Shown here piece by piece: positions 44,299-64,000 of a DNA stretch of 64,000 nucleotides. The translations under genes and the position numbers were made by a program. The notes beneath the pieces are model-generated. The model did not search any database, was not told where the DNA came from, and saw only the letters and a list, made by a program, of their open reading frames with translations. Position 1 is the first letter of the stretch. Every line of letters starts with the position of its first letter. Source of the stretch: Burkholderia sp. HI2500 (lineage in GTDB: Bacteria > Pseudomonadota > Gammaproteobacteria > Burkholderiales > Burkholderiaceae); the NCBI RefSeq assembly GCF_002223055.1, contig NZ_NKFL01000004.1, forward strand, positions 1,488,001-1,552,000, given 5' to 3'.

Positions 44299-45024
44299 TC
44301 AGGACGTTTGCGCGGTGGACGTCAGGAAGATCTCCCTCATGCAGACGTGCTGCGGCTGCGCATAGGCGAAGCACACCGCGCGTGCGACGTCGTCGGGATG
44401 CAGCACCGAAGCCAGCGAACTCATCCACTCGCGAAACATCGTCTTGGCGGACTCCGACGTGGTGGCGTCGAGCAGGGGCGTGTCAACCACGCCCGGCGCG
44501 ATGGTCGACACGCGGATATTGTGCTGGCCGAGATCGGCGCCCAGCGCGGCCGACATGCCGTGCACCGCGAATTTCGATGCGCAATACGCCGAATGAAATG
44601 GAAAGGCCTGGCGGCCGGTGATCGAGCTGACGTTGAAAATGCTGCCGCGCCGCCGCTCGATCATGCCGGGCAGCACGCTCTGAATCGCGTTCATCGTCCC
44701 GACGACGTTCACGTCCAGCATGGTTCGCAGTTCGTCGGCCGATTGTTCGAGCGGCTCGCCGAGCAGCATCGTTCCCGCGCTGTTCACGAGGCAGTCGACA
44801 CCGCCGAACTGCGCCTGCGCGGCCTGCACCGCGGCCCGCACCGCACATTCGTCGGTCACGTCCGCCGCAACGCATGCGGCGTTGGGCAAATCGAGCGCCT
44901 GCAGCTCCGCCAACCGCCGCGACACCAGCAGCAGCGGATGCCCGAGCGCCGCGAACGCACGCGCGACCGCCGCGCCAATGCCGGAGCTCGCGCCCGTCAC
45001 CATCACCAGCGGCAAAGTCGTCAC
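44299..45024 (-). CDS. Short-chain dehydrogenase/reductase in the biosynthetic cluster
   Basis: The 241-aa classical SDR starts MTTLPLVMVTGASSGIGAAVARAF. Its TGASSGIG, LVNSAG, catalytic Ser in IFNVSSITG and YCASK (SAYCASKFAVHG) are intact. It prefers NAD(P)H and probably reduces a ketone or aldehyde. Its start overlaps the end of the dioxygenase-like gene by four bases, so they are co-expressed, and both are driven from the lux-box-containing promoter. It could reduce an aldehyde released by the reductase domain of the megasynthase, or act on a side-chain keto group. Confidence 0.9.
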   Translation of the reverse strand: MTTLPLVMVTGASSGIGAAVARAFAALGHPLLLVSRRLAELQALDLPNAACVAADVTDECAVRAAVQAAQAQFGGVDCLVNSAGTMLLGEPLEQSADELRTMLDVNVVGTMNAIQSVLPGMIERRRGSIFNVSSITGRQAFPFHSAYCASKFAVHGMSAALGADLGQHNIRVSTIAPGVVDTPLLDATTSESAKTMFREWMSSLASVLHPDDVARAVCFAYAQPQHVCMREIFLTSTAQTS

Positions 45025-46616
45025 GACGCGCCTCCCGTGCGGACCCCGCGGTCGCGCTTGCGCTGTGCGCGTTGCTGCACGTCGGCATACATCGCCTTGA
45101 CCGCATTCGCCGTGAAGAACGCCATGTGCTCGTCAAAACGTCCCGGATGGACGATCGAGAACGGGGCGGGCGGCCGTTTGCCGAGCGTCGCCTCGTAAAG
45201 CGGGCCGATCGGATCGTTCATGTGCGAGTTGCGGAAGTTGTGCGCGGTCTGGGCCGCGTTTTCGGCGCCCGAAATCGAGGCGGTCGGCGTGTTGTCTTCC
45301 GGACTCACACCGATCTGCGTCTTGACGAACTGGATGTGCTCGTCACGCCATGTCCGCACGTACTGGTACACGTAGACCGTCTGGCGAATCATCGCGGCGA
45401 GCGCCGGTTGCGTGTTCAGGCGCAGCACCTGTTGCGCCTGCTCGAGCACGGCGTCGTCGTCGCGCGCGGCAGTGTCGTTGAATGCCATCAGCCGCAGGCG
45501 GAGCGAACGGACCAGCAGCGGGTAGATCGTCAGGAACAGCCCCTTGCGCAGATTGTGCGAGTGAGACCCGCTCGTGATGCCAAGCGCCGGCCGGATCGCG
45601 AAGTAAGCCTTCGGACTCAGCGTCCGCACGATCGGCTTGATGTTGTCGGTGACGATCTGCAGCAACTTGTTGCACAGCGCCAGCGACGTCGCCTCATGCT
45701 CGAACGACTCGTTCGCTTCGTTCACGAGCGCCAGGATCGAATCCGCGATCACGTCGTTGACAAGGCCCACGAGGACTTCGCTGATCTGGTGGTACGCACG
45801 GAACTGCATCAGGTACGTCGGATCCTTGAGGTCGACGCAGGTGACCGCATCGCGCACCTCGTCGTTCTGGACGACCCGCTGATAGAACTGCTCGGCGCTC
45901 TCGCCCTCGAGACGAAATACGCCCGGCACGCGAACGTGGCGCAGCACGGCCAGCCAGATCGTTTCGTAATTGGTATTGACGAAGGTGTGAAAGAACGTGA
46001 AGCGCTGCGGATCGTCGAGGTCCTTCTCCGAAACGTCGCCGACCGCTTCCGGCGCCGATTTCAGCGCTTCGTACATCGCTTCGGTTTTTTTCGCGGCAGC
46101 CTGATAGGTGGACGAATCCTCGATCGACAGAAAGTCCCCGCCATTGCGCCCGAGATCCGTTTGCACCAGCAACTGCGAAAAGCGGTACAGGGAATCGTTG
46201 AAATGATTCATCCACGAAATCTTGACCGACACGTCGCCGAAGCGGGAATGGCTGACGTCGTCGATGATCCGGTCGGCGAGGACGGAAATGTTATTCAGGC
46301 AGATTTCCGTCCCTCTGAAGATGGCGACAATACATTTTGCATCGATTTGCTGATTTTCGCAGTTTATGAGTCGATCCAGGTATTTCACGCCATGCAGAAG
46401 TTCGTAGTTCGCAAGCACCGCGGTGCTGTCGATCTCCGCATGCGTCGAGAACGCCTCGCGACGGCGCGAGATTTCGTCGAGGTCCAGTGATTTGGCGAGA
46501 AGCTTCTCCGTCGCGTGTTCCGCGGTGACGGGGAGATTGCTTTTGCTGCGCAGGAACGACGCGATTTCTTGCCGAATCGACCGGGCCGATTCGCTCTCAG
46601 GTGCTTTCACTTCCAT
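45021..46616 (-). CDS. Tryptophan 2,3-dioxygenase-superfamily-like heme protein
   Basis: The 531-aa product shows scattered motifs of the TDO/IDO heme superfamily: an early YHQISEVLVGLV (like HQ.yEl), CNKLLQIVTDNIKPIVRTLSP, ITSGSHSHNLRKGLF (like sGfQSlqFR), and TWRDEHIQFVKTQIG with the candidate proximal heme-ligand histidine (like W...H..mV.R.iG). It is much longer than TDO (about 280-400 aa). PrnB (tryptophan-ring rearrangement in pyrrolnitrin), MarE and SfmD are members used in natural-product synthesis. The start follows AGAGG. The gene leads the minus-strand arm of the cluster. Assignment is by motif only. Confidence 0.55.
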   Translation of the reverse strand: MEVKAPESESARSIRQEIASFLRSKSNLPVTAEHATEKLLAKSLDLDEISRRREAFSTHAEIDSTAVLANYELLHGVKYLDRLINCENQQIDAKCIVAIFRGTEICLNNISVLADRIIDDVSHSRFGDVSVKISWMNHFNDSLYRFSQLLVQTDLGRNGGDFLSIEDSSTYQAAAKKTEAMYEALKSAPEAVGDVSEKDLDDPQRFTFFHTFVNTNYETIWLAVLRHVRVPGVFRLEGESAEQFYQRVVQNDEVRDAVTCVDLKDPTYLMQFRAYHQISEVLVGLVNDVIADSILALVNEANESFEHEATSLALCNKLLQIVTDNIKPIVRTLSPKAYFAIRPALGITSGSHSHNLRKGLFLTIYPLLVRSLRLRLMAFNDTAARDDDAVLEQAQQVLRLNTQPALAAMIRQTVYVYQYVRTWRDEHIQFVKTQIGVSPEDNTPTASISGAENAAQTAHNFRNSHMNDPIGPLYEATLGKRPPAPFSIVHPGRFDEHMAFFTANAVKAMYADVQQRAQRKRDRGVRTGGAS

Positions 46617-46686
46617 TTAAAACCTCTCGATGGTCCGATGTTGATTTAATTGATTTTCAAGACGTATCAGGGTGGAGCGGGGGAGG

Positions 46687-46692
46687 ATTGTA
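46687..46692 (-). promoter_or_regulatory. -10 box of the minus-strand arm (TACAAT)
   Basis: Reads TACAAT on the minus strand. It lies exactly 22 bp from the edge of lux-like box 1 (46715-46734), giving a box centred near -44 of the predicted start. Confidence 0.5.
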
Positions 46693-46714
46693 TCGACTAT
46701 TTTCTCGAAATGAT

Positions 46715-46734
46715 CGCTGTCAGAACAGACAGCT
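46715..46734. promoter_or_regulatory. Lux-box-like palindrome 1
   Basis: The core GCTGTCAGAACAGACAGC is a perfect inverted repeat, matching the CT-N12-AG (here CTG-N10-CAG) form of AHL-LuxR boxes. It is predicted to serve the minus-strand arm. Confidence 0.65.
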
Positions 46735-46751
46735 TTATTCACGCCGATGAC

Positions 46752-46771
46752 ACCTGATGTTTGTGTCAGGG
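46752..46771. promoter_or_regulatory. Lux-box-like palindrome 2 (middle)
   Basis: ACCTGATGTTTGTGTCAGGG has the ACCTG...CAGG(t) half-sites of consensus lux boxes. It lies between boxes 1 and 3. Confidence 0.55.
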
Positions 46772-46773
46772 AT

Positions 46774-46793
46774 ATCTGTCAGATATTGCAGGT
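46774..46793. promoter_or_regulatory. Lux-box-like palindrome 3
   Basis: ATCTGTCAGATATTGCAGGT closely matches typical las/rhl/cep-type boxes (CT-N12-AG with GTCAGAT core). It lies 22 bp before the -10 TCTAAT of the plus-strand arm. Confidence 0.65.
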
Positions 46794-46815
46794 TCACGAC
46801 AACTGATTTTGATTG

Positions 46816-46821
46816 TCTAAT
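46816..46821 (+). promoter_or_regulatory. -10 box of the plus-strand arm (TCTAAT)
   Basis: Spaced 22 bp from box 3, the same geometry as on the minus arm. Transcription would start near 46828. Confidence 0.5.
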
Positions 46822-46906
46822 CACATTCCGCAACAGTGATTTGATATTTAATATATTTTTAGCATGTTCAAAGAAACGTGCGGTTTGCAAATCGGGTAAA
46901 TACAGA

Positions 46907-48145
46907 ATGATGCGGACGGACGATATCGCCCCGCGCCTGCGGGCCAGCATGGCCCAGGTTCTCGGAGCGCCGCTCCATTACGGTTTTCTCGCGGCGTTGT
47001 GCCGCGCCGGGGTGCGGGGCATCGATGGCGGCAACGACACGACCATCACGATCCGCAGACGCTCGGCCGTCGGCGCTGCGCCCCCGGCGATCACGATCGG
47101 ATCGCCCGAGATCGCCGGGGCTTTCCGCACGCTGGTTCGACGGGTCGCCGATCGTCTCGACGCGGCGGGGGGCGCGGACGCCGGCGCCGCCATCGATCAA
47201 TGGGAGCTCGAGGTCCGCGGCGGCGCGCACGGCCCCATCCTGCTGCGGCCGCACGACCCGACGCACGCGAACGCATGGCAGGTGAGCGTTGCCGGCGCGC
47301 CGGCGCTCGCGGCCGCCATCGGCGACAGGTGGCGTCACACCGCAGCCGAGCTCGCCGATCAGCTGGCCGTCGATCCGATCGTCGACGTCACCCGCGTGCT
47401 CGCCGGACGCCCGGCGCGCGACGCAAGCGATGCCGTGCTGACCCTGATTCACGGCGCCGACGGCAGCGTCGTGCCGTTCGCGCCGCTGGCCGCGCGGCTG
47501 CCGTTCATCGTCAGGGCGTTTCGCGGGGTGCCGGCGCAACTCGCGCAGGCCACCGACCTGAAGGACCTCGCGTACCGCTATGTCGATGCACTGTGCGAGA
47601 TCGATGACCGGCCTTTCCACTGGATCGGCGGTCACTCGTTCGGTGCGGTGGTGGCGCGCGAAATGGCCGCCCTGCTGGAGCAGCGCGGCAAGCGCCTGGG
47701 CGTCGTGGTCAGTCTCGATCCGTCGCTGGCCCTGGCGGCCCGCGAGCGTGTGAGCGACGACCGCACGGAGCGCGTCACGCTGCTCAAGGCGATGTTTCCG
47801 CCGGCGGAAGCCGATCGCGTCCTCGCCGAATCGCCCAGCGACAGCGAAATCGACGCCTGCCTGCGTCGGCGCATGCCCGCCGCCCGCCTGCGCGAGGTGC
47901 TCGACATGCGCCGCACGTGCCTGGCATTGCTGAAGTCCCACCGCACCGCCGCGGCCCCGGCCGCGCGCGTGGCCTGCCTGCACGCGCGCGAGCCGCTGCT
48001 GCCCGACTGGCATGCGCACGCGCTGCAGCATCGCGTGCAGGGCATCGAAGTACCCGGCAATCACTTTTCAATGCTCTCGGAGCCGCACGTCGCCTGTGTC
48101 GCTTCGATCGTTCAATCCCTTCGTCCTGAATCCTGCGATGACTGA
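46907..48145 (+). CDS. Thioesterase-domain protein with unrecognised N-terminal region
   Basis: The start is the MM pair at 46907 or 46910; upstream frame translates AT-rich promoter and is rejected. The 412-aa product has an unrecognised N-terminal ~175 residues (MMRTDDIAPRLRASMAQVLG). An NRPS/PKS-type II or TE-I thioesterase follows: LTLIHGADGSVVPFAPLA, nucleophile GGHSFGAVVAREM and C-terminal His (VPGNHFSML). It may hydrolyse or edit misloaded carrier proteins, or release a product. It overlaps the A-PCP gene by eight bases. An 11-codon frame (46864-46899) directly upstream may be a leader peptide. Confidence 0.8.
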   Translation: MMRTDDIAPRLRASMAQVLGAPLHYGFLAALCRAGVRGIDGGNDTTITIRRRSAVGAAPPAITIGSPEIAGAFRTLVRRVADRLDAAGGADAGAAIDQWELEVRGGAHGPILLRPHDPTHANAWQVSVAGAPALAAAIGDRWRHTAAELADQLAVDPIVDVTRVLAGRPARDASDAVLTLIHGADGSVVPFAPLAARLPFIVRAFRGVPAQLAQATDLKDLAYRYVDALCEIDDRPFHWIGGHSFGAVVAREMAALLEQRGKRLGVVVSLDPSLALAARERVSDDRTERVTLLKAMFPPAEADRVLAESPSDSEIDACLRRRMPAARLREVLDMRRTCLALLKSHRTAAAPAARVACLHAREPLLPDWHAHALQHRVQGIEVPGNHFSMLSEPHVACVASIVQSLRPESCDD

Positions 48146-49967
48146 ACCCATCTATTCACCCCACATCCCGCATCTGGCCTTCGAGCAGCGCGCCGCAGCG
48201 GCACCCGATCGAATCGCGGCCCTCTCGGAGCGCGAAAGCGTGACCTACGGTGAGATGAACGCGCGCGCGAACCGGCTGGCGCGTTTCCTGCGCGATGAAG
48301 TCGGCATCCGCGCCGGCGAGGCCGTCGGCGTGTGCACGGATCACGATCCTGTCAGGCTCGTCGCGTTACTGGCCATCCTGAAGTGCGGGGCCGTCTACGT
48401 GCCGGTCGACGCCGCGTGCCCCGAGGACCGGATGCGTCACATGGTCCAGCGCGCGCGCATCGCGTTCGTGCTGACGGCCCTGGAAGGTCGTGCGATGACG
48501 CAGCTCGGCGACGTGCCGCAAAGCGACGTCTATGCGGCGTTGAATCGGGCGAGCCAGTTGTCGTCCGACAATCTCGGGCTGGGTGCCGAACTGCACGATC
48601 CGCTCTACATCATCTTCACGTCCGGTTCCACCGGGCTGCCGAAGGGCGTTGCCGTCTCGCATGCCGCGGCGTGGAATCACTTCAGCTGGATCATCGACTA
48701 CCTCGGTTTCCGCGAGGACGATCGCTGGCTGCAAAGCATCAACCCGTGTTTCGACCCCTCCATGCACGAGCTGCTCGCGCCGCTGACAATCGGCGCGACG
48801 GTGTGCTTTCTCGGCGGCACGCACCGGATCGACAGCGTCGAGATCGTGGCCGCGATCCGGCGGCATGCGGCCACGCACATCACCACCGTGCCGACGATGT
48901 TCAACCTCATCACGCAAACGCCGGGCTTCGAACAATGCACGAGCCTGAAGGCGATCTGCGTCGGCGGCGAGGTCTTCCGTCCGTCGCTCGCGGAGCGCGC
49001 CCGGCGCCTGTTGCCCAACACGGTCGTCCACAACGTGTACGGGCCGACGGAGGCGACGATCATGGCGAGCGCATGGCCGTTTGACGACGCGCCGCGGGAT
49101 TCGCTGCCGATCGGTGCACCGGTTTCGCACACGCGCTTCTACCTGCGTCGAACCGCGGCGGACGGCGTGACCGACACGATCGTGTCCACGACGCCGGGGG
49201 AGGAGGGCGAGCTCTGCATCAGCGGCGCGGCGCTGGCCAACGGCTACGTGAACGACGCCGCGGAAACGGCGCGGCGCTTCATCGCGAATCCGCTGTTCGA
49301 GACCGGTGACCTGCCGGTGTACTCGCGCATCTACCTGACGGGCGACATCTGCCGGGTCGATGCAGACGGCCTCGTCCACTGCGTGGGGCGCGTGGACGAC
49401 CAGGTGAAGATCAACGGCCAGCGCGTCGAACTGGCGGAGATCGAATCCGCGGTGCTGCGCTCGCCGATGGTTCGCGATGCCACCGCGCTCGTCGTCGGCG
49501 ACCGGCTGACCGCCATTGTCGTTCTGGCCGACGGCCACGACACCACGTGGATGCGAACACTGAGCGAAACCGCTGCCCACGCGCTGCCGGCCGCCTGGCT
49601 GCCGAAGGACTGGGTCGCGGTCGCGGAGATCCCGCGCCAGGCGACGAGCGGCAAGGCGGACCGGCGCGCGCTCGTCGACCTCTGCCGCCAGGCCAGCGAG
49701 CGCACCCGGGCGGATGACGTGCCGGCCAACGACGTCGAGTCCGAAATCGGCCGCGCGCTGGCCCAGCTGATCGGCCTGGGCAGCGATGCGTTGATCGACC
49801 GGGACGAACCGTTCGCGGATATCGGGCTCGATTCGCTGGGCGTACAGGCGCTGTCGCTGCGGCTCAGCGCCACCTTCGGGGTGTCCCTCCGTGCCGAAGA
49901 CATGTTCGAGTACTACACGATCGACCTTCTTTCGCGCGAAATCCACTCGCGGCTTGCAACGGCATGA
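48138..49967 (+). CDS. Stand-alone NRPS adenylation-PCP didomain
   Basis: The start ATG at 48138 gives 609 aa (MTEPIYSPHIPHLAFEQRAAAAPDR). Adenylation cores are A3 YIIFTSGSTGLPKG, A5 NVYGPTEATI, A7 YLTGDICRVDADG and A8 VDDQVKINGQRVELAEIE, followed by PCP FADIGLDSLGVQAL with the phosphopantetheine Ser. No condensation domain is present, so it loads an amino acid to be modified in trans, as in pyrrole or oxidised-amino-acid starters. The approximate specificity residues (D-P-H-T-I-V-V-I by GrsA alignment) are from eye alignment and not decisive. Overlapping the next gene by four bases, it is coupled to the FAD oxidase. Confidence 0.93.
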   Translation: MTEPIYSPHIPHLAFEQRAAAAPDRIAALSERESVTYGEMNARANRLARFLRDEVGIRAGEAVGVCTDHDPVRLVALLAILKCGAVYVPVDAACPEDRMRHMVQRARIAFVLTALEGRAMTQLGDVPQSDVYAALNRASQLSSDNLGLGAELHDPLYIIFTSGSTGLPKGVAVSHAAAWNHFSWIIDYLGFREDDRWLQSINPCFDPSMHELLAPLTIGATVCFLGGTHRIDSVEIVAAIRRHAATHITTVPTMFNLITQTPGFEQCTSLKAICVGGEVFRPSLAERARRLLPNTVVHNVYGPTEATIMASAWPFDDAPRDSLPIGAPVSHTRFYLRRTAADGVTDTIVSTTPGEEGELCISGAALANGYVNDAAETARRFIANPLFETGDLPVYSRIYLTGDICRVDADGLVHCVGRVDDQVKINGQRVELAEIESAVLRSPMVRDATALVVGDRLTAIVVLADGHDTTWMRTLSETAAHALPAAWLPKDWVAVAEIPRQATSGKADRRALVDLCRQASERTRADDVPANDVESEIGRALAQLIGLGSDALIDRDEPFADIGLDSLGVQALSLRLSATFGVSLRAEDMFEYYTIDLLSREIHSRLATA

Positions 49968-51548
49968 GAACGACACCGGTCGCCGCGCGCAATGGCGCGC
50001 GCGGCACCGGGTCTTCCAGACGGAGAATTCATTTGGATACCGATGTACTGATCGCCGGTGGCGGTCTGGCTGGCCTGTATGCCGCCTATGAACTGAAGAA
50101 GCGTCACCCCGGACTGCGGGTTCGCCTGGTCGAGATGCTGTCTCGCATCGGCGGCCGGGTGCAGACCGACGAGATGCTCGCCGGCGCATTCCGTGCGGAA
50201 TACGGCGCCGTGCGAATCGAGCCCGATCTTCAGCCGCTCGTCGACGCCTTCGTGCAGGCGCTGGGCGTCCCCGTGCAACCCATTTCGTCGCACGAGGCAG
50301 GTTCGTCGATCCGTCCGTGTGCGGCGAAGCTGACCGAGGACGAGCGCGCGCTGCTGGCGGATCCGCGCGCGCACGATCCGCCCTGGGCGCTGCTGATGCA
50401 TGCGGTACGCGTGATCGTCGCCGACCAGTGGGACCTCGACGGCGACCGCTTCGACCGGCCTGGCCGGGCCGAGGCACTGGCGAGATTCCGGACGGACGCC
50501 CGGTTCGGGGGCATGCCGCTTTACCAGCAGGGTATCTGGAACGTGCTGTCGAACGTACTGAGCCATGAAGCGGTCGAGTTCACGCGCGAGAAGGGGGCGT
50601 TCTACAACTTCAAGAACGCGAATCCGAATGCCGCGGAATGGATCGCGACGCTGCTCGACCTGCGCCTGCTCGAGCGTCCGTCCTACCTGCCGGTCGGCGG
50701 CATGCAGACGCTGATCGACTACGCGGGGCGCGCGGTGCGCGCACTGGGCGTCGACGTGGTCGTGGATCACGCGCTCGTCGACTTGTCGGAGCAGCCCGAC
50801 GGCGCCATCGCCGCGACGATCGAAGACGTGTCGACTGCGGAGCGGCGCCGCGTCGTCGTCCGGTGCGGGCGCGTCGTGCTCGCGCTGCCGCAGCGCCCGC
50901 TCCGGGCGCTTGCCCGCTGCCTGCCGCCGGCCGTGACCGCCAGCCTCGATGCCGTCGTCCCGTTCCCGATCACGTGGGCATGCTGCGTGGTCGAGGACCC
51001 GTGGTGGAACGCCGACACGCCGCCAGGCAGCGGCGAAGGCGCGATGGTCCGGGCCGCTCATTTCGAGGTCCACCCCAGCCAGCCGGAACGGTACGGCATG
51101 GCGATGTTCTACAGCGATGAACCGTGGCATCAGTACTGGGCCAACCTGATCGACACGGAAGAAGGCCGCCGCGGCTGGCAGTCGGCCCCGTACCGCAACC
51201 GGGGCGAGCGCCTGAAGGCGGCGCTCGTCCGGACGCTGCAGCAGACGTTCTCGCGCGACGACACGCCGCGCATCCTCGAATGGGGCATCCGCGACTGGAG
51301 CATGGCGCCGTTCGGCGCCGGCGTGCACTTCTGGCGTCCCGGCTACCGCTCGGCGGACGTGATTCGGCAACTGGCCGCCTTCGGCATCGGCGCCGATCCG
51401 GCCAACCGGCGCGTGCATATCTGCGGCGAGGCCTATTCGGACCTGCAGGGCTTCTTCGAAGGCGCCTGCCGTTCGGTGCAATGCATGCTGCAACAGATCG
51501 ACGCGCAGAACGGAACGGAAAAACACAACGCAACGACGGAGTCGAGCA

Positions 51549-51562
<14 letters not shown>
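49964..51562 (+). CDS. FAD-dependent amino-acid oxidase (L-tryptophan-oxidase-like)
   Basis: The product is 532 aa if translated from the ATG that overlaps the previous stop. A TTG at 50033 with a GGAG ribosome-binding site 7 nt before it would give a 509-aa form starting just before the FAD motif, which is plausible. The dinucleotide motif is TDVLIAGGGLAGLYAAYELKK, with the amine-oxidase GGRV (LSRIGGRVQTDEM). The C-terminal motif HICGEAYSDLQGFFEGA resembles that of L-tryptophan oxidases such as VioA and RebO (GEAYSDyQGWvEGA). It would oxidise a free or PCP-bound amino acid to the imine. It overlaps the megasynthase start by 14 bases. Confidence 0.82.
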
Positions 51563-61271
<9,709 letters not shown>

Positions 61272-61323
61272 TCCCTTTCCCTGAACCCGGACGGACGGTT
61301 GCCCGTCCGTCCGCACGCTGACC

Positions 61324-62562
61324 ATGAAGACATCCAAACTTGCCATTGCCTCGCTGTTCCTGACCATCTTTGTCGATGCCGCCGGAATCGGCATCGTGTT
61401 TCCCGCGCTGACGCCGATGCTGCTCAACAACGAAACCGGCCTGTTTGCCGCGTCGGTGAGCGAGGCCACGCGCTATCAGATCTACGGCATCGTGCTGGCG
61501 CTCTATCCGCTGGCCATGTTCGCCGCGTCGCCGCTGCTCGGCGACATGTCCGATCGGTACGGCCGCAAACGTGTGCTGCTGCTGTGCCTGGGCGGCAACG
61601 CGCTCGGCATGCTCGGCACCGCTGCCGGCGTGTACGCCGGCAGTCTGTGGGGGGTGCTCGTCGGCCGCGCGATCTGCGGCCTGACCGCCGCGAGCCTGCC
61701 GGTTGCGCAGGCGGCCGTCATCGACATCAGCACGCCCGACACGAAAGCCGGCAACCTCAGCACGATCACTGCGGCGAACGGCGTGGGATTCGCGATCGGG
61801 CCGGTCATCGGTGGGGTGTTTTCCGGCACGGGCGGCGGTGCGTTCGGCGTCGCGCTGCCGTTCGTCATCGGTGCCGCCCTGGCGGCGCTCACGCTCGCGT
61901 TCGTGATCGCGTTCTTCTCCGATCGTCGCGCACACGACGGCACCACGCCTGCGCGACGCGCCGGCGCATGGCGGCGCATCGTCGCGAATGCGGCATCGCC
62001 GGTACTCCGCACGCCGCTCGTCATCCTCGCGGTGTTCCTGACCGGCTACTACATCTTCTTCAACTACATGTCGGCCTTTTCCCTGCTGCGGTATGGATTC
62101 GACGCGTTCTGGGAGGCGATGCTGCTGTCGTTCTACTCGGCGTGCTTCGCCGTGTCGCTGCTGTTCATCATTCCCGCACTGGCGAAGGCGTTTTCACCGC
62201 GACGGAACCTCATGGGCAGCCTGATCGCGCAACCGGTCCTGATCGCACTGGTGATGCTGGTCGACGCCCCCATCAGCCTCTGGGCGGCCGTGCCGCTGCT
62301 CGCGCTCGCCGTCTCCAACTGCTATGTCACGCTGCTCAGCATCGCGTCGAACCGCGCGACCGCCGACGATCAGGGGCAGGTGCTGGGCGTCGTCTCGTCG
62401 ATCAATGCGCTTGCCTGGGGCGTCGCCCCGATCGTGACCTCGTTGCTGCAGCCGCACTCGATCGTCCTCCCGGTCGCGACGTCCGCGCTCGTGCTCGTGT
62501 CGGCGTGTGTGCTGGGCGGCCGCTTCTGCAACCAGGCGATCGAACTCGAGGTCAGCCGATGA
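61324..62562 (+). CDS. MFS efflux transporter of the biosynthetic cluster
   Basis: The 412-aa protein begins MKTSKLAIASLFLTIFVDAAGIGIVFPALTPML, then shows about 12 membrane segments with LLGDMSDRYGRKRVLLL as the MFS signature loop and motif C-like GPVIGGVFSGTGGG, typical of DHA1 drug:H+ antiporters (TetA-like). It starts 52 nt after the megasynthase stop. It likely exports the cluster's product, conferring self-protection. Confidence 0.9.
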   Translation: MKTSKLAIASLFLTIFVDAAGIGIVFPALTPMLLNNETGLFAASVSEATRYQIYGIVLALYPLAMFAASPLLGDMSDRYGRKRVLLLCLGGNALGMLGTAAGVYAGSLWGVLVGRAICGLTAASLPVAQAAVIDISTPDTKAGNLSTITAANGVGFAIGPVIGGVFSGTGGGAFGVALPFVIGAALAALTLAFVIAFFSDRRAHDGTTPARRAGAWRRIVANAASPVLRTPLVILAVFLTGYYIFFNYMSAFSLLRYGFDAFWEAMLLSFYSACFAVSLLFIIPALAKAFSPRRNLMGSLIAQPVLIALVMLVDAPISLWAAVPLLALAVSNCYVTLLSIASNRATADDQGQVLGVVSSINALAWGVAPIVTSLLQPHSIVLPVATSALVLVSACVLGGRFCNQAIELEVSR

Positions 62563-62605
62563 GCCCGCGTCAAGGTCATTCACCGCGAACCAACTGGAGA
62601 ATTCA

Positions 62606-63922
62606 ATGAATCCCAACACTCCCCAACTGCCTCATCCGCTGGGATTGCGGCGTGTCGTCGTGACGGGGCTCGGCCTCGTGACTCCGCTCGGCGTCGGTGT
62701 CGAACACTCGTGGCGGAACCTGCTCGCCGGTCGAAGCGGTATCACGACCATCGATCGCTTCGACACGTCGAACCTGCCTTGCAAGATCGCCGGGCTGATT
62801 CCCGCCGGCAATGCGCGCGACGGCGGCTTCGATGCGACCGAATGGGTCGAGGCGAAGGAAGTCAAGAAAATGGATCCGTTCATCGTCTATGCGATCGCGG
62901 CCGCCACGGAAGCGCTCGACGACGCACAATGGCATCCGGACGACCGGGCGCTGCAGAATCGCACCGGCGTCATGGTCGGTGCGGGTATCGGCGGCCTGCC
63001 GGGCATCGAGGCTGGATCGCGACAAATCGAGCGTGCGCCCGGCAAGCGGCTGTCGCCGTTCTTCATTCCGTCGAACCTGATCAACCTGGCCGCCGGCCAG
63101 ATTTCGATCAAGTACGGCTTTCGCGGCCCGACGCACGCAACGGTCACGGCATGCGCATCCGGTGCCCATGCGATCGGCGATGCGGCGCGCCTGATCGCGC
63201 TCGACGACGCGGACGTGATGATCGCGGGGGGCGCGGAGGCCGCCGTGTGCGAGGTCGGGATCGCCGGTTTTGCCGCGGCGAAAGCGCTGTCCACGGGCTT
63301 CAACGACACGCCGGAGCGTGCGTCGCGGCCGTGGGATGCCGACCGCGACGGCTTCGTGATGGGTGAGGGCAGCGGCATGGTCGTCCTCGAGGAATACGGG
63401 CATGCGCTGGCGCGCGGCGCCCGGATCTACGCGGAAGTGATCGGTTACGGCATGTCGGGCGACGCTTATCACATCGTCGCGCCGCCGGATGATGGCGACG
63501 GCGCGGCCCGCGCGATGCTGGCCGCCCTCAAGCGTGCGCGCATCGAGCCGGACGCCATCGACTACATCAATGCGCATTCGACGTCGACGCCCGCCGGCGA
63601 TCTGGCCGAGATCGCCGCGCTGAAACGCGTGTTTGGCGAGCATCTGTTCGGTGGTGCGTCGGTGTCCGCCACGAAGGCGTCGACCGGGCACCTGCTCGGC
63701 GCCGCCGGCAGCGTCGAAGCGGTGTTCGCGCTGCTGGCGCTCCGCGACCAGGTCGCACCGCCGACGATCAACCTCGATCGCCCGGCCCCCGAATGCGACG
63801 GCCTCGATCTGGTGCCGAACCGCAGCAAGTCGCGGCCGGTGCGTTACACGCTGTCGAATTCCTTCGGCTTCGGCGGAACGAACGCCGCGCTGATATTCGG
63901 CCCTCCGCCGGCAGACGCCTGA
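62606..63922 (+). CDS. Beta-ketoacyl-ACP synthase II (FabF-like)
   Basis: The start ATG at 62606 after GGAGAATTCA gives 438 aa (MNPNTPQLPHPLGLRRVVVTGLGLVTPLG). The active-site Cys is in ATVTACASGAHAIGDAARLI; His residues are in INAHSTSTPAGDLAE and KASTGHLLGAAG. FabF enzymes usually read AHGTSTP and ACATG, so two nearby positions are altered. It is likely a cluster-specific ketosynthase or a resistant copy that replaces the host FabF if the product targets fatty-acid synthesis. It may also make a fatty-acyl starter. It is followed by a strong terminator. Confidence 0.93.
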   Translation: MNPNTPQLPHPLGLRRVVVTGLGLVTPLGVGVEHSWRNLLAGRSGITTIDRFDTSNLPCKIAGLIPAGNARDGGFDATEWVEAKEVKKMDPFIVYAIAAATEALDDAQWHPDDRALQNRTGVMVGAGIGGLPGIEAGSRQIERAPGKRLSPFFIPSNLINLAAGQISIKYGFRGPTHATVTACASGAHAIGDAARLIALDDADVMIAGGAEAAVCEVGIAGFAAAKALSTGFNDTPERASRPWDADRDGFVMGEGSGMVVLEEYGHALARGARIYAEVIGYGMSGDAYHIVAPPDDGDGAARAMLAALKRARIEPDAIDYINAHSTSTPAGDLAEIAALKRVFGEHLFGGASVSATKASTGHLLGAAGSVEAVFALLALRDQVAPPTINLDRPAPECDGLDLVPNRSKSRPVRYTLSNSFGFGGTNAALIFGPPPADA

Positions 63923-63927
63923 TCCAG

Positions 63928-63960
63928 GGGCATGCCGGACAGCCCGTCCGGCATGCCCTT
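63928..63960 (+). terminator. Strong intrinsic terminator at the right end of the cluster
   Basis: A 13-bp perfect stem (GGGCATGCCGGAC with its complement) and 5-nt loop, followed by only two T. It begins six nt after the FabF-like stop. Confidence 0.7.
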
Positions 63961-64000
63961 GACGTCACATGGCATCCGTCCGGATAGTCACTTGCATATT

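What the first reader, a model, noticed from the sequence alone, without database searches (positions are those of the whole stretch)
44299..63922. Candidate undescribed PKS-NRPS cluster with a tryptophan-type oxidase and reductive release
The genes A-PCP, FAD oxidase, KS-AT-DH-KR-ACP-C-A-PCP-R, thioesterase, MFS, FabF, SDR and TDO-like protein are tightly coupled (overlaps of 4-14 bp). Starting the megasynthase directly with KS suggests that the A-PCP-loaded, oxidised amino acid is the starter. One malonyl extension to an alpha,beta-unsaturated unit, one amino acid and reduction to an aldehyde or alcohol would follow. I do not recognise a matching characterised Burkholderia product (not fragin, pyrrolnitrin, occidiofungin, glidobactin or malleilactone by layout).
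Basis: partly seen in the sequence, partly recalled or inferred. Interest (0 to 1): 0.85.

Follow-up and report, generated by a model that had tools for sequence, protein, structure and literature searches.

The report
Hybrid antibiotic-type cluster with spare FabF
A set of Burkholderia genes looks like an assembly line for an unidentified small molecule ending in an aldehyde or alcohol, and it carries its own altered copy of a fatty-acid enzyme, which hints that the molecule may block that enzyme in competing bacteria.

Summary
A-PCP, flavoenzyme and KS-AT-DH-KR-ACP-C-A-PCP-R, usually with MFS and FabF, recur in Burkholderia sp. BCC0506, B. arboris, Rugamonas, two Legionella and, split over contigs, Janthinobacterium. 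I found no description of it, but had no curated cluster database.

Two corrections. The flavoenzyme is nearest to an L-methionine oxidase, not VioA; 22 of 23 close relatives have Trp where 64 of 64 distant ones have Lys. The TDO-like protein has the TDO/IDO fold and both histidines but is no TDO equivalog.

The missed clue is FabF, an extra copy in all seven genomes. Cluster FabFs form two lineages (one-clade test p 0.004, post hoc). Six of six aligned have Ala/Ser after the catalytic His, Gly in 22 comparison FabFs, though two set-aside BCC0506 paralogues and FabFs elsewhere share Ala. Best reading: the product inhibits fatty-acid condensing enzymes and FabF is self-resistance, as in platensimycin and thiotetronate clusters. 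That is inferred; the product is unknown.

The parts
44299..45024 (-). SDR (short-chain dehydrogenase), tailoring, overlaps the TDO-like gene by 4 bp
   Evidence: PF00106 176.8 bits; 62-99% identical copies beside the TDO-like gene in BCC0506, B. arboris, Janthinobacterium, Rugamonas
45021..46616 (-). TDO/IDO/PrnB-fold protein, probable haem oxygenase; His276 and His427 line up with two key His of TDO (roles recalled)
46907..48145 (+). stand-alone type II thioesterase, with an N-terminal stretch of about 175 residues without a Pfam match (ORF from 46757; preferred start 46907)
   Evidence: PF00975 57.7 bits at residues 228-450 of the ORF
48138..49967 (+). A-PCP loading didomain (ORF from 48012; preferred start 48138)
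   Evidence: PF00501, PF00550; pocket region conserved from Burkholderia to Legionella in 7 copies read
49964..51562 (+). FAD flavoenzyme of the L-amino acid oxidase type, with Trp338 where distant relatives have Lys
   Evidence: PF01593 66.2 bits
51549..61271 (+). megasynthase KS-AT-DH-KR-ACP-C-A-PCP-R, 3240 aa
   Evidence: catalytic motifs
61324..62562 (+). MFS exporter
   Evidence: PF07690 136.3 bits
62606..63922 (+). FabF (beta-ketoacyl-ACP synthase II), extra copy in the genome, proposed self-resistance form (ORF from 62507; preferred start 62606)
   Evidence: TIGR03150 608 bits, cut-off 493.75
63932..64000 (+). start of an HxlR-family regulator gene (its end, 537 bp past the window end, is L009:2537)
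   Evidence: (PF01638 78.1 bits)

Best explanation
It is a horizontally spread natural-product cluster. Steps inferred from domains: the A-PCP loads amino acid 1, the flavoenzyme oxidises it (free or on the PCP), the KS module adds one malonyl unit and reduces it to an alpha,beta-unsaturated acyl group, C-A-PCP adds amino acid 2, and R releases an aldehyde or alcohol. In Burkholderia, Janthinobacterium and Rugamonas a TDO-fold haem protein and an SDR tailor it further. The product, exported by the MFS, is proposed to inhibit fatty-acid condensing enzymes (FabF). The cluster FabF, with a changed active site, would keep the producer alive, and the neighbouring HxlR regulator may control it. Shown: gene content, conservation, two FabF lineages, residue changes. 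Inferred: substrates, product, target, export, resistance.
For: Core genes recur in six named genomes of four genera besides this one, Janthinobacterium split over contigs. The KS, AT, DH, KR, CP, A and R motifs searched for are found in the window copy. Each of the 7 genomes with the core has a further FabF, at least 52% identical, outside the cluster; in G000 it sits next to an acpP-like gene. Six cluster FabFs held as one clade are rejected (AU p 0.0045, test made after seeing an earlier tree), so FabF probably joined the core at least twice. 6 of 6 aligned cluster copies have A/S at E. coli Gly305 (M1 = 1), beside the catalytic His, as has the BCC0506 copy; 22 of 22 comparison FabFs have G. 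The four Burkholderia, Janthinobacterium and Rugamonas copies also have Val at E. coli Thr271 (Thr270 in mature numbering), on the gating loop of PMC7138838 (passages). Precedents: PtmP3/PtnP3 target replacement (PMC6332302 passages); KAS I/II genes in thiotetronate PKS-NRPS clusters (PMC5518548 abstract and passages). HxlR at 96-100% identity occurs only in the 3 of 65 genus genomes that have the flavoenzyme.
Against: No product, target or resistance is shown. Ala at that FabF site also occurs without this cluster: two further FabF-like genes of BCC0506 (C3b, C5b), which I left out of the 22 comparison rows, have it; the Ala/Ser motif matched 29 of 200 phylum genomes, and 21 of the 30 loci fetched hold a FabF, the window's own included. 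Sharing one changed site between the two lineages is not significant by itself (hypergeometric p 0.18). The Legionella and MAG copies keep Thr271. The MAG showed no other FabF above 40% identity. The FabF copy in the L. nautarum cluster reads with two stop codons, although its megasynthase is open. The oxidase lacks the usual Lys, so its reaction is uncertain. The R domain scores 183 bits against the TIGR01746 cut-off of 213.
Confidence: 0.48

Rival explanations
1. FabF is a biosynthetic enzyme of the pathway (for example elongating an acyl chain that is loaded or attached), not a resistance copy; the target is something else.
For: FabF keeps the catalytic Cys, both His and GFGGTN and stays with the core in several genera.
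Against: Two separate FabF lineages joined the same core, more natural for a target copy than for a dedicated pathway enzyme. No separate ACP or other FAS gene is among the nine proteins scanned. The L. nautarum copy reads with stops while the megasynthase is open.
Confidence: 0.2
2. FabF-HxlR is a general FabF2-type stress unit that happens to sit at the cluster edge and has nothing to do with the product.
For: HxlR-FabF pairs occur elsewhere (L138, L139, L152-L154, L167-L169). A cryptic fabF2 in an operon with a TetR repressor and efflux genes is known in P. putida (PMC8319022 abstract and passages).
Against: FabF also accompanies the core in Rugamonas and Legionella drozanskii, and no HxlR match was seen beside the Rugamonas and Janthinobacterium copies (1.5-kb flanks). 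In a gammaproteobacterial MAG, FabF lies beside an MFS gene and near the flavoenzyme gene with another NRPS.
Confidence: 0.15
3. The cluster makes a compound already described in a paper or database not held here.
For: No curated cluster database was available, and most subscription papers are missing from the library.
Against: Searches returned no paper; the titles and abstract starts listed do not describe it. The part of the compound table of PMC10826400 that I saw (passages) names known compounds only; gene layouts were not compared.
Confidence: 0.12

Closest known systems
Thiotetronate clusters (thiolactomycin, Tu 3010), PMC5518548
   Same: PKS-NRPS hybrid with KAS I/II genes in the cluster as plausible self-resistance (abstract and passages)
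   Different: There: iterative PKS, Cy domain, L-Cys, sulfur-transfer enzymes, thioesterase. Here: C domain, reductase release, flavoenzyme, TDO-fold protein
Platensimycin/platencin clusters (PtmP3/PtnP3), PMC6332302
   Same: A cluster-borne condensing enzyme replaces the inhibited FabF (passages)
   Different: Terpenoid product, no PKS-NRPS assembly line (recalled); resistance is reported there, only inferred here
Thailandamide cluster of B. thailandensis
   Same: A Burkholderia product that inhibits fatty-acid synthesis, at acetyl-CoA carboxylase (PMC9958762 passage)
   Different: Different enzyme target and a trans-AT polyketide (recalled)
L-methionine oxidase 8zb2/8zf8
   Different: Trp338 replaces the Lys of that enzyme
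Tryptophan 2,3-dioxygenase, MarE, IDO, PrnB
   Same: Fold and both key histidines of TDO
   Different: 531 aa with an added N-terminal part relative to TDO; 29 bits against the TDO equivalog cut-off 390.7
P. putida fabF2 operon (PMC8319022)
   Same: A second FabF under its own repressor with efflux genes (abstract and passages)
   Different: TetR there, HxlR here; no biosynthetic genes mentioned in the passages seen

Membership tests
Hybrid PKS-NRPS with reductive release | KS, AT, DH, KR, ACP, C, A, PCP in one protein with catalytic motifs | tested here: met
   C motif is NHLVMDA, so the second His is kept but the first is Asn and Gly is Ala
Hybrid PKS-NRPS with reductive release | C-terminal thioester reductase with NAD motif and Tyr-x3-Lys | tested here: met
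   PF07993 148.6 bits, TGATGHLG and GYERSK; but TIGR01746 is 183 bits, below its cut-off 213
VioA-type tryptophan oxidase | NCBIfam equivalog score above cut-off | tested here: not met
   43.5 bits against 600
L-amino acid / amine oxidase | PF01593 and fold | tested here: met
L-amino acid / amine oxidase | conserved Lys in the active site (its role at flavin N5 is recalled; K304 of the methionine oxidase) | tested here: not met
   Trp338; W in 22 of 23 close homologues (one is the window's own protein), K in 64 of 64 distant ones; the 16 weakest of 103 hits were not aligned
Tryptophan 2,3-dioxygenase | TIGR03036 score above cut-off | tested here: not met
   29.1 bits against 390.7
TDO/IDO/PrnB fold | fold and the histidine that binds haem in TDO (recalled role) | tested here: met
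   haem itself not testable
FabF (KAS II) | TIGR03150 above cut-off, Cys-His-His | tested here: met
   608 bits, cut-off 493.75; motifs
Cluster-borne FabF self-resistance | further condensing enzyme in the cluster beside a host copy | tested here: met
Cluster-borne FabF self-resistance | the copy withstands the product | not testable with these tools
   needs product and enzyme
Thiotetronate clusters | Cy domain motif and sulfur-transfer genes in or near the cluster | tested here: not met
   C-type motif instead; no sulfur-transfer family among the nine proteins scanned; the rest of the genome was not searched for them
Glidobactin/syringolin type | same module order and macrocycle chemistry | not tested
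   compared by recall only

The most novel reading that the evidence does not exclude
A new class of FabF inhibitor, probably a vinylogous aminoacyl aldehyde made from an amino acid oxidised by a Lys-less flavoenzyme, produced by distantly related bacteria that took up different, altered FabFs for protection. HxlR-FabF pairs elsewhere would then be resistance cassettes against such compounds.
Probability: 0.25. Interest if true: 0.8.

Novelty: new variant of a known kind. Interest (0 to 1): 0.58.

Why it matters
Few natural inhibitors of bacterial fatty-acid condensing enzymes are known to me. A conserved cluster with a likely target written into it can be tested directly, including in Janthinobacterium or Rugamonas. 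It also raises whether HxlR-FabF pairs in genomes without the cluster are resistance units.

Tried and rejected
A-domain substrate calling: pocket residues read by motif give D-P-H-T-(I/V/M)-V-V-I-M for the first and D-(I/V)-P-S-I-(V/I)-L-(I/V)-Y for the second (sequences; positions and comparison codes recalled). I could match neither to a known substrate, so none is claimed.

VioA/tryptophan oxidase: rejected on score and nearest structure.

Strong convergence claim for the FabF site: weakened, because the same residue occurs in FabFs without this cluster, two of them in BCC0506, and the overlap of changed sites has p 0.18.

HxlR fused to FabF in BCC0506: looked so from the open frame, rejected after translation, since the frame read holds no HxlR domain; the two genes are adjacent.

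Motif patterns on the other megasynthases: several of my patterns found nothing in the Legionella, Rugamonas and Janthinobacterium copies (for example the DH His motif in both Legionella). I did not examine whether these are losses or variants.

Neighbours of the second BCC0506 HxlR-FabF pair: of ten ORFs sent to Pfam, nine from L130, only three gave a family (FabF, an MFS gene, an E1 dehydrogenase); no biosynthetic context was recognised, and the follow-up one search failed.

Paper searches that returned nothing.

First FabF motif and tree scripts failed or read some rows on the wrong strand; superseded.
Full report
What is there. The window lies at 1488001-1552000 of contig C4 of an 8.26-Mb genome, Burkholderia by its named near-identical relative. 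From 46907 to 63922 the plus strand carries a type II thioesterase, an A-PCP didomain, a FAD flavoenzyme, a 3240-residue megasynthase, an MFS exporter and FabF; 9 bp on follows an HxlR regulator that runs out of the window. On the minus strand, divergent from these, lie a TDO-fold gene and an SDR gene with a 4-bp overlap.

The megasynthase is intact by motif: KS Cys and both His, AT GHSVGEY with a malonyl-type AFH motif (specificity reading recalled), DH HxxxGxxxxP and Asp, KR Ser/Tyr/Asn, both carrier serines, A-domain cores and a reductase with TGATGHLG and YERSK. The C motif is NHLVMDA instead of HHxxxDG. The reductase scores below the TIGR01746 cut-off (183 against 213) but far above Pfam's.

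Relatives. The flavoenzyme gene is in 3 of 65 genus genomes, this one included. One scan of the species-genome collection for its alignment returned 54 loci. Of the twelve I compared gene by gene (L014-L025), six carry the core or the part of it on the contig: Burkholderia sp. BCC0506, B. arboris LMG 24066, Janthinobacterium violaceinigrum (cut after the DH region by the contig end; its MFS-FabF pair lies on another contig), Rugamonas sp. CCM 8940, Legionella drozanskii and L. nautarum (no MFS within the stretch held). A gammaproteobacterial MAG (L017) shares flavoenzyme, FabF and MFS but has another NRPS. The other five share only the flavoenzyme, apart from one weak A-domain match in L022. 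The other 42 loci were not compared. The TDO-fold and SDR genes are present in the five Burkholderia, Janthinobacterium and Rugamonas genomes; the TDO-fold protein had no match in the two Legionella genomes or the MAG. The pocket region of the first A domain is nearly the same in the seven copies read, Burkholderia to Legionella, so the starter amino acid is probably shared.

FabF. The genome has another FabF, 55% identical, next to an acpP-like gene; that the copies in the other hosts are the housekeeping ones is assumed. Apart from other cluster copies, the cluster FabF is closest to FabFs of another class in the phylum (65% at best in a 200-genome sample). In the tree the Burkholderia, Janthinobacterium and Rugamonas copies join those (99/100 support), apart from the Legionella and MAG copies; forcing the six cluster FabFs into one clade is rejected (AU p 0.0045). 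I tested this group after seeing an earlier tree. The tree used 15 of the 29 non-self loci fetched, and left out the L. nautarum cluster copy (two stops), the near-identical BCC0506 copy, one misread row and two long-branch rows. All six aligned cluster copies have Ala or Ser after the catalytic His; 22 of 22 comparison FabFs, E. coli included, have Gly. Left out of that comparison were BCC0506 paralogues C3b and C5b, which have Ala, and six FabF-like or FabB-like rows, which have Gly. The four Burkholderia, Janthinobacterium and Rugamonas copies also have Val for Thr271 (Thr270 mature), a residue that PMC7138838 places on gating loop 2 and in contact with ACP (passages).

Limits of that argument. 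The Ala/Ser motif matched 29 of 200 phylum genomes, the Gly motif 189 of 200. Of the 30 loci fetched for the Ala/Ser motif, 21 hold a FabF, one being the window's own; the other 9 show none. Of the 20 others with FabF, 5 have an HxlR gene close by; none of 29 control FabF loci does, though the two sets of stretches are cut differently. So altered FabFs with HxlR exist apart from the cluster. Coincidence of one changed site between lineages has p 0.18. The case for self-resistance rests on the two separate recruitments, the FabF-MFS neighbourhood, the active-site position and precedent: PtmP3/PtnP3 (PMC6332302, passages) and thiotetronate clusters (PMC5518548, abstract and passages).

Mechanism proposed. 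Loading of amino acid 1, oxidation, one malonyl extension to an unsaturated unit, addition of amino acid 2, reductive release. An unsaturated amide and an aldehyde could both react with a catalytic cysteine such as FabF's; this is inference.

Novelty. Ten paper searches were made. Those aimed at this cluster or its parts showed no paper that describes it; some searches looked for other things. I saw listings and the passages cited, no whole paper. No curated cluster database was at hand. It is best called a new variant of a known kind.

Noticed in passing
L138, L139, L152, L153, L154, L167, L168, L169: Further HxlR-FabF gene pairs in other genomes of the phylum and at a second place in BCC0506 (L169); possible stand-alone resistance or stress units.
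   Followed up: partly
L018:11489-19609: The Legionella drozanskii megasynthase goes from KS to DH with no AT match or AT motif found, while L. nautarum has one.
   Followed up: partly
G070:C11:34152-35396 (L076): The L. nautarum cluster FabF reads with two TAA stops; described only.
   Followed up: no
L018:8-7380: Upstream of the L. drozanskii core lie a further A-PCP, a KS-PCP-reductase protein, an ATC-hydrolase-like protein and an M20 peptidase.
   Followed up: partly
L019:8950-18700: In Rugamonas the PKS and NRPS halves lie in different reading frames: two genes or a frame change.
   Followed up: no
P0023: A 56% identical flavoenzyme is recorded from the actinobacterium Crossiella equi; its neighbourhood was not examined.
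   Followed up: no
window:42873-43892: The ORF beyond the SDR gene has a match in only 2 of 65 genus genomes, this one included, and no Pfam hit; outside the cluster.
   Followed up: partly
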